NCBI RefSeq assembly: GCF_032884065.1
Contig: NC_088880.1
Span: 30,965,298 to 31,029,297 of the forward strand
Source of the DNA: Artemia franciscana
Taxonomy: Eukaryota > Arthropoda > Branchiopoda > Anostraca > Artemiidae
Length of the DNA stretch: 64,000 bases
Direction of reading: 5' to 3'
Of the stretch, positions 20,201 through 26,200 are shown in pieces. The position numbers and the translations under genes are program-made. The notes under the pieces were generated by a model. That model was given only the letters and a program-made list of their open reading frames with translations, made no database searches and had not been told where the DNA came from. How positions within the stretch are numbered: the stretch's first letter is position 1; each line of letters starts with the position of its first letter.

Positions 20201-23200
20201 CTCCCCTACAATCAATGTCTGCCCCTGGGGACGATGATATTTTACCCCCCTCCCCTTTTTTTGGCATCTACCAACTTTGTACTCGAATAGTAGTAGTATT
20301 AAAGCATGTGTTCTGACGCTTAATTCTGTTTTGGGTTAAGTCCAAACCTTAATCAGTGGTTCTCTGAAAACTAAAAATAATAATTGAAGATTAAACTCAT
20401 TCAACTAAAATCAAACTTACTGAAATTTCACTCCGTCGCCAAATAGACGGTCATTATGCCAAAACATGGTAATTGCCTGTCTTAAAATTAAGTCCAACAT
20501 AGTTGAACTTTAATTTTGGACTCAATCAAGACAGAGGCCAGCACCTGACAATCATTAGTGCTATCGGCTTTTTATTCACTCACCTGGCCAAATCTGGGTT
20601 GCCATCACGATCAGTTCCTAATGTGCTACAATCGCCCAAATTTGCGTACTACTTAACGATTCTCGGTGCAAAAAGTTGACTGTAAAAGTGTTAAAAATAA
20701 CATTTTCGTGCTACAGGTGGCAACCCTGAGTAAGTGCTACAGCTCTAAAAATAATGAAATTGTGCTAAAATAGCCCTTTCGGGCTGAAGGTGGCAACCCA
20801 GGTGCAAATCCTGTAGTGCTTCTTTCAGAAATTCTGCTTGCTTCTACCAACCTATACGTTTTTCCAGATTTATGTAATGGCTATTGCTTGAACGACGGTG
20901 TTTGTAAGAAAAATAAGGCTTTTGAGCCTTATTTTAAAGGCTCAAAAAAAAGGCTCCTGTAGTGCTTATTTCAGAATTCTGCTTGCTTCTACCAACCTAT
21001 ACGTTTTTCCAGATTTATGTAATGGCTATTGCTTGAACGAAGGTGTTTGTAAGAAAAATAAGGCTTTTGAGCCTTATTTTAAAGGCTCAAAAAAAAGGCT
21101 CCTGTAGTGCTTATTTCAGAAATTCTGCTTGCTTCTACCAACCTATACGTTTTTCCAGATTTATGTAATGGCTATTGCTTGAACGACGGTGTTTGTAAGA
21201 AAAATAAGGCTTTTGAGCCTTATTTTAAAGGCTCAAAAAAAGGCTCCTGTAGTGCTTCTTTCAGAAATTCTGCTTGCTTCTACCAACCTATACGTTTTTC
21301 CAGATTTATGTAATGGCTATTGCTTGAACGACGGTGTTTGTAACAAAAATAAGGCTTTTGAGCCTTATTTTAAAGGCTCAAAAAAAAGGCTCCTGTAGTG
21401 CTTATTTCAGAAATTCTGCTTGCTTCTACCAACCTATACGTTTTTCCAGATTTATGTAATGGCTATTGCTTGAACGACGGTGTTTGTAAGAAAAATAAGG
21501 CTTTTGAGCCTTATTTTAAAGGCTCAAAAAAAAGGCTCCTGTAGTGCTTATTTCAGAAATTCTGCTTGCTTCTACCAACCTATACGTTTTTCCAGATTTA
21601 TGTAATGGCTATTGCTTGAACGACGGTGTTTGTAAGAAAAATAAGGCTTTTGAGCCTTATTTTAAAGGCTAAAAAAAAGGCTCCTGTAGTGCTTATTTCA
21701 GAAATTCTGCTTGCTTCTACCAACCTATACGTTTTTCTAGATTTATGTAATGGCTATTGCTTGAACGACGGTGTTTGTAAGAAAAATAAGGCTTTTGAGC
21801 CTTATTTTAAAGGCTAAAAAAAAGGCTCCTGTAGTGCTTCTTTCAGAAATTCTGCTTGCTTCTACCAACCTATATGTTTTTCCAGATTTATGTAATGGCT
21901 ATTGCTTGAACGACGGTGTTTGTAAGAAAAATAAGGCTTTTGAGCCTTATTTTAAAGGCTCAAAAAAAAAGGCTCCTGTAGTGCTTATTTCAGAAATTCT
22001 GCTTGCTTCTACCAACCTATACGTTTTTCCAGATTTATGTAATGGCTATGGCTTGAACGACGGTGTTTGTAAGAAAAATAAGGCTTTTGAGCCTTATTTT
22101 AAAGGCTCAAAAAAAAGGCTCCTGTAGTGCTTATTTCAGAAATTCTGCTTGCTTCTACCAACCTATACGTTTTTCCAGATTTATGTAATGGCTATTGCTT
22201 GAACGACGGTGTTTGTAAGAAAAATAAGGCTTTTGAGCCTTATTTTAAAGGCTCAAAAAAAGGCTCCTGTAGTGCTTATTTCAGAAATTCTGCTTGCTTC
22301 TACCAACCTATACGTTTTTCCAGATTTATGTAATGGCTATTGCTTGAACGACGGTGTTTGTAAGAAAAATAAGGCTTTTGAGCCTTATTTTAAAGGCTCA
22401 AAAAAAAAGGCTCCTGTAGTGCTTATTTCAGAAATTCTGCTTGCTTCTACCAACCTATACGTTTTTCCAGATTTATGTAATGGCTATTGCTTGAACGACG
22501 GTGTTTGTAAGAAAAATAAGGCTTTTGAGCCTTATTTTAAAGGCTCAAAAAAAAGGCTCCTGTAGTGCTTATTTCAGAAATTCTGCTTGCTTCTACCAAC
22601 CTATACGTTTTTCCAGATTTATGTAATGGCTATTGCTTGAACGACGGTGTTTGTAAGAAAAATAAGGCTTTTGAGCCTTATTTTAAAGGCTCAAAAAAAA
22701 GGCTCCTGTAGTGCTTATTTCAGAAATTCTGCTTGCTTCTACCAACCTATACGTTTTTCCAGATTTATGTAATGGCTATTGCTTGAACGACGGTGTTTGT
22801 AAGAAAAATAAGGCTTTTGAGCCTTATTTTAAAGGCTCAAAAAAAAGGCTCCTGTAGTGCTTATTTCAGAAATTCTGCTTGCTTCTACCAACCTATACGT
22901 TTTTCCAGATTTATGTAATGGCTATTGCTTGAACGACGGTGTTTGTAAGAAAAATAAGGCTTTTGAGCCTTATTTTAAAGGCTCAAAAAAAAGGCTCCTG
23001 TAGTGCTTCTTTCAGAAATTCTGCTTGCTTCTACCAACCTATACGTTTTTCCAGATTTATGTAATGGCTATTGCTTGAACGACGGTGTTTGTAAGAAAAA
23101 TAAGGCTTTTGAGCCTTATTTTAAAGGCTCAAAAAAAAGGCTCCTGTAGTGCTTATTTCAGAAATTCTGCTTGCTTCTACCAACCTATACGTTTTTCCAG

Positions 23201-26200
23201 ATTTATGTAATGGCTATTGCTTGAACGACGGTGTTTGTAAGAAAAATAAGGCTTTTGAGCCTTATTTTAAAGGCTCAAAAAAAAGGCTCCTGTAGTGCTT
23301 CTTTCAGAAATTCTGCTTGCTTCTACCAACCTATACGTTTTTCCAGATTTATGTAATGGCTATTGCTTGAACGACGGTGTTTGTAAGAAAAATAAGGCTT
23401 TTGAGCCTTATTTTAAAGGCTCAAAAAAAGGCTCCTGTAGTGCTTATTTCAGAAATTCTGCTTGCTTCTACCAACCTATACGTTTTTCCAGATTTATGTA
23501 ATGGCTATTGCTTGAACGACGGTGTTTGTAAGAAAAATAAGGCTTTTGAGCCTTATTTTAAAGGCTCAAAAAAAAAGGCTCCTGTAGTGCTTATTTCAGA
23601 AATTCTGCTTGCTTCTACCAACCTATACGTTTTTCCAGATTTATGTAATGGCTATTGCTTGAACGATGGTGTCTGTAAGAAAAATAAGGCTTTTGAGCCT
23701 TATTTTAAAGGCTCAAAAAAAAGGCTCCTGTAGTGCTTATTTCAGAAATTCTGCTTGCTTCTACCAACCTATACGTTTTTCCAGATTTATGTAATGGCTA
23801 TTGCTTGAACGACGGTGTTTGTAAGAAAAATAAGGCTTTTGAGCCTTATTTTAAAGGCTCAAAAAAAAGGCTCCTGTAGTGCTTATTTCAGAAATTCTGC
23901 TTGCTTCTACCAACCTATACGTTTTTCCAGATTTATGTAATGGCTATTGCTTGAACGACGGTGTTTGTAAGAAAAATAAGGCTTTTGAGCCTTATTTTAA
24001 AGGCTCAAAAAAAAAGGCTCCTGTAGTGCTTATTTCAGAAATTCTGCTTGCTTCTACCAACCTATACGTTTTTCCAGATTTATGTAATGGCTATTGCTTG
24101 AACGATGGTGTCTGTAAGAAAAATAAGGCTTTTGAGCCTTATTTTAAAGGCTCAAAAAAAAGGCTCCTGTAGTGCTTATTTCAGAAATTCTGCTTGCTTC
24201 TACCAACCTATACGTTTTTCCAGATTTATGTAATGGCTATTGCTTGAACGACGGTGTTTGTAAGAAAAATAAGGCTTTTGAGCCTTATTTTAAAGGCTCA
24301 AAAAAAGGCTCCTGTAGTGCTTATTTCAGAAATTCTGCTTGCTTCTACCAACCTATACGTTTTTCCAGATTTATGTAATGGCTATTGCTTGAACGACGGT
24401 GTTTGTAAGAAAAATAAGGCTTTTGAGCCTTATTTTAAAGGCTCAAAAAAAAGGCTCCTGTAGTGCTTATTTCAGAAATTCTGCTTGCTTCTACCAACCT
24501 ATACGTTTTTCCAGATTTATGTAATGGCTATTGCTTGAACGACGGTGTTTGTAAGAAAAATAAGGCTTTTGAGCCTTATTTTAAAGGCTCAAAAAAAAGG
24601 CTCCTGTAGTGCTTATTTCAGAAATTCTGCTTGCTTCTACCAACCTATACGTTTTTCCAGATTTATGTAATGGCTATTGCTTGAACGACGGTGTTTGTAA
24701 GAAAAATAAGGCTTTTGAGCCTTATTTTAAAGGCTCAAAAAAAAGGCTCCTGTAGTGCTTATTTCAGAAATTCTGCTTGCTTCTACCAACCTATACGTTT
24801 TTCCAGATTTATGTAATGGCTATTGCTTGAACGATGGTGTCTGTAAGAAAAATAAGGCTTTTGAGCCCCAGTGTCAATGTCCAGGCAGTTATCAAGGAAA
24901 ACGATGTGAGGAGAAATCCGAGTTTGCATATATCGCTGGAGGAATAGCCGGATCTGTCATTCTTCTTATCTTGATGATACTTCTCATCTGGATGATATGT
25001 GTGAGGTTAGTTTTAGTTTCTATTATGTTTACCTACCTAAATGTTGTTGAACAGAATGTTGTTCTCACTCTATCAGCATTTATCTCAGATTGATTTATGA
25101 GTGTTATCTGGCACAGATAATTAGTTCTTTTTTTCTTACATAAGCTCCCTTCTCATTTAAAAACTAATCACTGTCTTTAATAAAATTGCAAATCTCTTTT
25201 TATAATTAATTGTCATTAATTTTATAAATAAATTAATTAATTTAATTGTGTTATCTGTCGCAATGATTTTGTTTGGTTTTTGAACATAAGCTCCCTTCTC
25301 ATTTAAAAACTAATCGCTATCTTTTACCAAATTGCAAATCTCTTTTTTTGTAATCAAAAGGGCTATCTCGTCTTGAACGACAGCAAAAAAGCAAATGAAT
25401 CCAAGTTTTAAGAAAATGGCCATTTTCTTTTAGAATATGTCAGTTACTTCCAATTTTATTTCATTTCCCATTTCCAATCTAATATCGAATTTTGTTGATG
25501 TTATCTATAGCCTGTCGTAAGAGGGTTTCCCCCTCCCCTCTGTTTTTCTCTGTCTTTCAGTTTTCTTTTTCTCTTATCTGTATTTTTACTGAATGAACAT
25601 CTGTTGTTGTATCTTTTTTCGCTCATTTGTTCTTTATTTTCCATTTCTTCATTTTTCATTTTCAGTTTTACATTTTTTTCTCCATTTCATCTATATTCAA
25701 AAAGCAGAAGAGTAATTCTCTCTATTCGGTACAAGCTCTAGCACTATTATGAGAAGAGTACTTTATTATCAAGCAAACTCTCACAACATAAAAACTGCCG
25801 AACTTGTTGCCTTCAGTCAGCTAGCCTACATTGTATACAAAAACAAATAAATAATAAAACATAGGTATATAAGTGAAATATTAAATCATTGCCTACAGTG
25901 ATGAACTAAACTGACCTGTCAAATAAAATGAGTACAATGAATAAAAATGAGTACTTAAGTACACAAACATAAGTACATAAGTAAAATGTGAGTAAAATAA
26001 GTAAAAGTAAGTAATATAAGTAAAATGAATAAAGATGAGGGCATAAGTAAAAGGGCAATAAGTACATTATAAAAAAACATACACCGATAAATCTAACTGG
26101 CCTGTCAAATAAAAATGAAACAAAAAAAACAGCACATAAACAATATAAAATGACACACCAACGTGATGCATTACAAATTTCATTTATTTATGATTTCAAC

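What the first reader, a model, noticed from the sequence alone, without database searches (positions are those of the whole stretch)
20820..24870. 28 tandem copies of a 3' splice site plus half an exon in a conserved membrane-protein gene
Seen: a 145-147 bp unit containing intron end, pyrimidine tract, AG and about 63 coding bases is repeated 28 times, and only copy 28 continues into the rest of the EGF domain and the transmembrane helix. The splicing machinery therefore meets 27 equally good decoy acceptors before the working one. Inference: this may regulate anchor inclusion, tune expression by splicing competition, or be tolerated junk made harmless because only copy 28 forms a definable exon with a donor close by.
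Basis: partly seen in the sequence, partly recalled or inferred. Interest (0 to 1): 0.92.

Follow-up and report, generated by a model that had tools for sequence, protein, structure and literature searches.

The report
Repeated splice junction in brine shrimp
A brine shrimp cell-surface gene carries one of its intron-exon joints 28 times in a row, an extreme case of a known kind of DNA stutter ("mirage" repeat) that most likely does nothing because only the last copy is attached to the rest of the exon.

Summary
Window 20811-24867 holds 28 head-to-tail copies (145-147 bp) of an intron 3' end plus 61 coding bases. All keep the AG; only copy 28 runs on into the rest of the exon, the membrane helix and a donor. 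The genome is Artemia franciscana (brine shrimp), the gene its uninflatable (Uif) orthologue. It is not a one-off: four more arrays span boundaries of confirmed exons of this gene, a fifth lies at a probable upstream exon, another at a likely exon elsewhere in the window, and two in 40 sampled myosin-exon loci. In the uif core, arrays cover splice sites about as often as random placement predicts (5 of 37; 5.5 expected), so nothing suggests targeting. Lancelets have the same structure ("mirages"), with normal splicing by RT-PCR. Best explanation: a neutral minisatellite that captured a splice junction, copy 28 being used because it alone continues to an intact exon and donor. All 27 decoys, read on, give an early stop. 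No transcript was available, so splicing is inferred. Boldest open reading: each unit is a ready-made 36-nt in-frame micro-exon with a 109-111-nt intron (GTAAG in 27 of 28 copies). Public Iso-Seq could test this.

The parts
16945..17092 (+). exon before the array (EGF-type), ends CTG|GTAAGT, phase 1
   Evidence: tblastn with homologues; splice sites read
20811..24749 (+). 27 decoy copies (145-147 bp): intron 3' end, AG, 61 exonic nt, 28-nt junction filler in the commonest unit; copy 7 has TCTAG, copy 4 lacks the internal GTAAG
24750..24867 (+). copy 28, the only copy joined to the rest of the exon
24807..25005 (+). working exon: last EGF plus transmembrane helix, 199 nt, donor GAG|GTTAGT
   Evidence: open frame, homology
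24843..24848 (+). internal GTAAGA 36 nt after the AG; GTAAG at this place in 27 of 28 copies (possible micro-exon donor)
27239..27456 (+). cytoplasmic-tail exon (...[18 protein letters not shown]...[14 protein letters not shown]), first donor used in the model
27425..27797 (+). second boundary-spanning array in the same gene: end of that exon plus donor GTAAGTG, 3 copies
29593..29738 (+). last coding exon of the uninflatable orthologue, to the stop codon
52985..53503 (+). likely exon of another gene with its end plus donor repeated 4 times (103 bp); exon status and gene identity not confirmed by homology

Best explanation
This is a 'mirage': a minisatellite that arose by tandem duplication of a stretch straddling an intron-exon junction of the Artemia uninflatable gene and then expanded to 28 copies. 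Shown: the array, its position on a verified junction, no second place found for it in the assembly, near-identical splice signals in every copy, stops after every decoy, and several other boundary-spanning arrays in the same genome. Inferred: unequal exchange or slippage expanded and homogenised it; the splicing machinery pairs the donor at 25006 with the nearest acceptor across the 199-nt exon (copy 28) and removes copies 1-27 as intron; occasional use of a decoy gives an early stop and mRNA decay; so the array is close to neutral.
For: Boundary-spanning arrays recur. In homology-confirmed exons of uif there are five, the focal one included (window coordinates -23824, -14336, -9006, 20809, 27425); a sixth is at -92399, at an EGF-type ORF 60 kb further upstream that no homologue matched. 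One lies at 53092. In the 40 myosin-exon loci fetched (of 66 matches), L039 (acceptor x4) and L050 (135-bp unit, 9 decoys with AG) are arrays. In the 61.75-kb uif core, 5 of 37 splice sites lie in arrays against 5.5 expected by circular shift (4 against 3.1 without the focal array), while exonic bases in arrays are fewer than expected (244 against 788; 4.5% of shifts as low). All 43 acceptor decoys in five arrays (one of them without AG) hit an in-frame stop when read on. 0 of 121 homologues aligned across the junction have a repeated half-EGF. Flanking introns in the model are 7.7 and 2.2 kb; for large flanking introns PMC9225289 (abstract) reports preference for splice sites closest across the exon. 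Lancelet mirages do not disturb splicing by RT-PCR (PMC3087553 passages; PMC3902484 passage).
Against: No transcript of this gene from Artemia was among the listed hits, so the splice choice is not observed. In PMC9225289 section 9 the upstream 3' splice site preference is 'significantly reduced' rather than abolished under exon definition, so some decoy use is expected. The shared acceptor is below this gene's median (PWM 4.4 against 7.5), and so is the working donor (8.6 against 9.9). The 57 of 178 protein hits whose alignment did not span the junction were not tested for an insert.
Confidence: 0.82

Rival explanations
1. Ready-made introns: AG of copy k, 36 in-frame nt, internal GTAAG, then a 109-111-nt intron to the AG of copy k+1. 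One or more 12-residue inserts ([12 protein letters not shown] type) are spliced in before the membrane anchor, or a new intron is being born.
For: GTAAG 36 nt after AG in 27 of 28 copies, spacing 109-111 nt; 36 is a multiple of 3 so the frame holds; in potato RdRp a boundary-spanning duplication activated a cryptic GTAAG in its exonic part and gained an intron supported by 106 RNA-Seq reads (PMC4974935 section 5); human boundary repeats can form new introns (PMC2812944 abstract passage).
Against: Internal donor TTT|GTAAGA scores 5.4 (4.9 in copies 20, 23, 28) against 8.6 for the working donor, though two of 15 verified donors score about 5; it is forced by the coding sequence (Cys-Lys) rather than added; 0 of 121 homologues aligned there show the insert; no Artemia transcript seen.
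Confidence: 0.07
2. Regulatory competition: decoy acceptors draw off part of the transcripts into early-stop mRNAs or a soluble ectodomain, tuning Uif level or anchoring with copy number.
For: 26 of 28 acceptor windows are identical, and all 27 decoys stop within 25-80 codons, before the membrane helix.
Against: Stops follow every decoy looked at, not just here (43 of 43 in five arrays); arrays at splice sites occur at chance level in the uif core; decoys carry unconstrained changes, e.g. copy 9 alters a cysteine codon. Conservation of the array could not be tested.
Confidence: 0.07
3. Assembly artefact or inflated copy number.
For: Pooled females, PacBio Sequel reads with polishing (PMC11492255 passages); 53 of 351 unit pairs are identical.
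Against: Units carry distinct substitutions in non-random order (copies 20 and 23 share two bases with copy 28; copies 6 and 7 share one change); a 4-kb array is shorter than the 20-kb libraries; other boundary arrays with different units exist.
Confidence: 0.04

Closest known systems
Lancelet 'mirages' (Adh3, globins BflGb6/BflGb9, troponin C, PGBD5)
   Same: Minisatellite-like tandem duplications of an intron-exon boundary, at acceptors and donors, units 10-160 bp, splice signals often kept, concerted evolution (PMC3087553 passages; PMC3902484 passage).
   Different: Those are chordate genes with a few units (6 and 3 in the two BflGb6 haplotypes) and RT-PCR support; here a crustacean, 28 units, no transcript data. 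The original Adh3 paper (Nucleic Acids Res 2002) is not held and was not read.
Intron gain by boundary-spanning tandem duplication (potato RdRp)
   Same: Duplication includes intron 3' end and exon start; a GTAAG lies in the duplicated exonic part (PMC4974935 abstract and section 5).
   Different: There one extra copy and a new intron with read support; here 27 extra copies and no evidence of use.
Human internal tandem repeats at exon-intron boundaries
   Same: Variable tandem repeats at exon-intron boundaries that can alter splicing (PMC2812944 passages).
   Different: Found by comparing recent paralogues in segmental duplications; here a single-locus array in a conserved gene.
Tandemly duplicated whole exons (as in L053, a myosin gene here; mutually exclusive use is recalled, not tested)
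   Same: Repeated coding sequence with its acceptor.
   Different: Here only half an exon is repeated; no decoy has the exon's own 3' end and donor.
Duplicated splice-site competition constructs (1980s globin work; recalled, not read)
   Same: Same design: identical splice sites in cis with a truncated exon.
   Different: Natural, and 28 sites instead of two.

Membership tests
Mirage (boundary-spanning minisatellite) | Repeat unit straddles a real intron-exon junction | tested here: met
   Junction fixed by homology and an open five-exon frame; unit = intron end to the AG, 61 exonic nt, filler
Mirage (boundary-spanning minisatellite) | Tandem, minisatellite-like copies | tested here: met
   28 copies, 145-147 bp
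Mirage (boundary-spanning minisatellite) | Splice signals kept in many copies | tested here: met
   AG in 28 of 28; acceptor window identical in 26 of 28
Mirage (boundary-spanning minisatellite) | Both 5' and 3' exon boundaries can be affected | tested here: met
   Confirmed uif exons: 2 acceptor and 3 donor arrays, plus 1 acceptor array at a probable upstream exon
Mirage (boundary-spanning minisatellite) | Normal splicing despite the copies | not testable with these tools
   No Artemia uif transcript or protein among the listed hits
Mirage (boundary-spanning minisatellite) | Length polymorphism or somatic instability | not testable with these tools
   One assembly; no second contig matched the locus
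Mirage (boundary-spanning minisatellite) | Terminal working copy excluded from homogenisation | tested here: inconclusive
   Copy 28 differs from 25 of 27 decoys at the same two exonic positions but is matched by copies 20 and 23
Intron gain by tandem duplication | A new intron spliced between copies in mRNA | not testable with these tools
   Signals present (GTAAG in 27 of 28 copies); no RNA
Tandemly duplicated whole exons | Each copy is a whole exon with acceptor and donor | tested here: not met
   Only 61 of 199 exon nt are repeated
Uninflatable (Uif) orthologue | EGF/GCC2-GCC3 ectodomain, terminal EGF, membrane helix, tail with [12 protein letters not shown] | tested here: met
   Colinear tblastn along P0001 and P0005; Ephrin_rec_like domains; the Drosophila uif cytoplasmic guide RNA printed in PMC12867482 reads YNETYM when translated by hand; the name Uif for this family is otherwise recalled

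The most novel reading that the evidence does not exclude
The array is a natural nursery of introns: 27 consecutive, nearly identical, ready-to-splice units (26 with the internal GTAAG), each an in-frame 36-nt micro-exon followed by a 109-111-nt intron, from which the animal splices variable numbers of 12-residue cysteine-bearing inserts just outside the membrane anchor of a Notch-pathway protein, or from which a new intron is about to be fixed.
Probability: 0.06. Interest if true: 0.88.

Novelty: new member of a known kind. Interest (0 to 1): 0.52.

Why it matters
In what I read, mirages are described from lancelets; here they occur repeatedly in a crustacean, and one reaches 28 copies. That gives a natural series (2, 3, 4, about 10 and 28 near-identical acceptors; 3 and 4 near-identical donors) in one genome with public Iso-Seq data, in which the rule for choosing among identical splice sites, and the step from duplication to a new intron, can be measured directly. 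It also warns annotators: identical half-exons in tandem are not extra exons.

Tried and rejected
Targeted duplication of splice sites: not supported (5 of 37 sites, 5.5 expected). The 37 site positions came from homology ends; several (for example -25341, -19481, -19139, -985, 1718, 4646) do not show GT or AG exactly and are off by up to tens of bases; 15 donors and 14 acceptors were read with GT or AG. The five array-covered sites are among those read exactly, within one base.

Myosin sample: besides the five loci counted, the BLAST check also gave a 31-bp match at 84% near the acceptor of L045, a 43-bp match at 81% inside the L058 exon, a dispersed 102-bp copy in L035 and whole tandem exons in L053; these four were not counted as boundary copies. 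Only the match plus 60 bases was compared with about 1.5 kb around it. 26 of the 66 matches were not fetched as loci of their own, and the first 20 were mostly the better-scoring ones.

RNA structure: the decoy unit folds at z = -1.1 against shuffles, not notable; an 11-bp hairpin spans the copy junction, whose 3' arm is missing from copy 28; no evidence that it matters. Rfam: no match in the window at gathering thresholds. Higher-order periodicity: only a slight dip at lag 3. The 28-nt filler shares a 9-mer with the reverse complement of the exonic part, a hint of fold-back template switching, no more. PMC8724738 (one passage) added nothing.

Papers: the searches (one search was rejected for its wording) listed no report of mirages in an arthropod; that is all that can be said.

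On re-check I lowered the array at -92399 from 'in uif' to 'at a probable upstream exon', because no homologue matched that ORF.
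Full report
OBSERVATION. The array is there and far beyond chance: TRF reports 20809-24867, period 146, 27.8 copies, 98% match. Unit by unit there are 28 copies, spaced 145-147 bp; 10 of the 27 full units are letter-identical. Each holds the end of an intron, a pyrimidine stretch, AG (28 of 28) and 61 coding nucleotides ending ...GAGCC; a filler (28 nt in the commonest unit) leads to the next copy. Copy 28 alone continues into ...CCAGTGTCAATGTCC, the second half of an EGF domain, a membrane helix and the donor GAG|GTTAGT at 25006. 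A whole-assembly DNA search listed 28 matches of the unit, all here.

ORGANISM AND GENE. COX1 from the same assembly is 100% identical over 447 residues to the cluster represented by COX1_ARTSF (a mnemonic I recall as A. franciscana). Contig lengths 67,337,973 and 45,252,357 in the fetch tables equal the longest scaffold and the N50 of the published female A. franciscana assembly (PMC11492255 passages); the totals differ slightly (6468 contigs and 1,270,528,402 bases held; 6486 and 1,270,721,445 published). The gene is colinear with long EGF/GCC2-GCC3 membrane proteins of insects, a spider and others (P0001 at 53% identity over the query region). The tail motif [12 protein letters not shown] is shared with those homologues, and a guide RNA printed for the Drosophila uif cytoplasmic domain (PMC12867482 passages) reads YNETYM when translated by hand; I therefore call it the uninflatable orthologue. 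Uif can antagonise Notch signalling in Drosophila (PMC3340373 title, search listing).

ONE FUNCTIONAL COPY. Joining the exons at 9544-10028, 16945-17092, 24807-25005 (copy 28), 27239-27456 (first donor) and 29593 onward gives one open frame to a stop. Of 178 protein hits in hand, 121 align across the junction. None contains the decoy tail; insert sizes there are 0-8 residues in 117 of 121, and the other four (15-24 residues) are printed in the call and are not a repeated half-EGF. The 57 hits not aligned across the junction were not tested. Spliced to any of copies 1-27 and read on, the message meets a stop after 25-80 codons (27 of 27).

NOT ALONE. TRF on 264 kb around the window found 44 merged arrays of period 40 or more, covering 24.3 kb. 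At homology-confirmed uif exons they include, in window coordinates and besides the focal one: an acceptor array at -14336 (3 copies) and donor arrays at -23824 (2 copies, the second donor decayed to GG), -9006 (3 copies, 100% match) and 27425 (3 copies). At -92399 an EGF-type ORF has its acceptor twice; it lies 60 kb upstream of the first exon taken as confirmed, so it is only a probable uif exon. A likely exon of another gene has its donor end four times at 53092-53503. As a sample elsewhere I fetched 40 loci from the 66 myosin-head matches. Arrays span the acceptor in L039 (4 copies of the P-loop exon start) and in L050 (135-bp unit, 9.4 copies by TRF; 10 decoys, 9 with AG, 8 of those 9 with a TGA in the exonic part). 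Four further boundary copies were seen only by BLAST: L034 donor (58 bp, 100%, 283 bp away), L038 and L057 acceptor side (77-78%), L050 donor (76%; the second copy keeps GT, a third is decayed). So 5 of 40 loci show a repeated exon boundary, 2 of 40 as a multi-copy array. Match ends were not all checked to be splice sites.

CHANCE OR TARGETING. In the uif core (61,751 bp, 19 exons, 37 splice sites) 14 arrays cover 15.0%; 5 sites fall inside, 5.5 expected over all circular shifts (69% of shifts give 5 or more); without the focal array 4 against 3.1 (39% of shifts as high). Exonic bases in arrays are fewer than expected (244 against 788; 4.5% of sampled shifts as low). The simple reading: tandem duplication is so common here that junctions are hit as often as anything else and survive, while coding sequence is somewhat protected. 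Some site positions in that test are approximate (see Tried and rejected).

HOW IT WORKS. The geometry sets the outcome: a duplication across an acceptor leaves only the last copy attached to the rest of the exon, one across a donor only the first. With flanking introns of 7.7 and 2.2 kb in the model, the exon should be recognised as a unit, and PMC9225289 (abstract) finds that with large flanking introns the sites closest across the exon are preferred; its section 9 says that for acceptors the upstream preference is significantly reduced, not that it disappears. Copies 26-27 would make exons of 345-491 nt, so some leak into decoys is plausible and would give early stops. A crude PWM from this gene's own sites does not single out the acceptor: 119 of 588 AGs in 17093-29592 (array copies included) score as high as copy 28, while 7 of 614 GTs score as high as the working donor, which fits the donor side doing the choosing. 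All of this step is inference: no RNA was available to me.

HISTORY OF THE ARRAY. 25 of 27 decoys differ from copy 28 at the same two exonic positions, while copies 20 and 23 match it; pairs of copies share private changes. This fits expansion and homogenisation among decoys by unequal exchange. Decoy changes include loss of a cysteine codon (copy 9), so no constraint is visible.

WHAT IT IS LIKE. [quoted passage not shown] PGBD5, Adh and troponin C are further lancelet cases (PMC3902484 passage). The globin authors propose that mirages can seed new introns; potato RdRp shows one such birth from a cryptic GTAAG in the duplicated exonic part (PMC4974935 section 5). The Artemia unit has that feature too: GTAAG 36 nt after the AG in 27 of 28 copies, with 109-111 nt to the next AG, frame preserved. 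The internal donor is weaker than the working one (5.4 against 8.6) but within the range of this gene's verified donors (4.9-12.2), so the micro-exon reading is unlikely, not excluded.

VERDICT. Real, most likely neutral, and a new member of a known kind. My searches listed no report under that name outside lancelets, and the copy number exceeds the lancelet counts I read. Interest 0.52.

Noticed in passing
C18:30876330-30923571 (window about -88967 to -41726; loci L010-L014): A near-tandem duplication with copies about 23.5 kb apart (main block 16.7 kb at 99.2% identity) that includes a sushi-domain exon.
   Followed up: no
52985-53503: At the donor array of the second gene, splicing from the second or third donor instead of the first would keep the frame open (exon lengthened in steps divisible by 3, no stop); the fourth would not. 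So this one could add in-frame protein repeats. Gene identity unknown.
   Followed up: partly
L035 241-342 versus 716-817: A 102-bp, 99% identical piece of a myosin exon lies 475 bp upstream, apparently without splice sites: a dispersed partial-exon copy.
   Followed up: no
27521-27711 and about -23680 to -23440: GGCCTAA-like short repeats sit at the copy junctions of two donor arrays in uif; at 27425 they resemble the exon's own GCCTAATTTTT.
   Followed up: no
7942-8445: 142-bp x 3.7 array in a uif intron, without any recognised exon boundary.
   Followed up: no
31594-32352 (-), 41909-42379 (+), 50827-51645 (+): Retroelement fragments (weak reverse transcriptase matches below the Pfam cut-off, one RNase H match above it); the last ORF carries a 57-bp tandem repeat at 51045-51159 that keeps the frame.
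   Followed up: no
whole assembly: 75 COX1 matches, 13 of them covering at least 435 of 436 model positions, on chromosomes and small contigs: abundant nuclear mitochondrial copies (one or more may be the mitochondrial genome itself).
   Followed up: no
18380-18451 (-): ARAGORN tRNA-Pyl call next to T-rich intron repeats, probably false.
   Followed up: no
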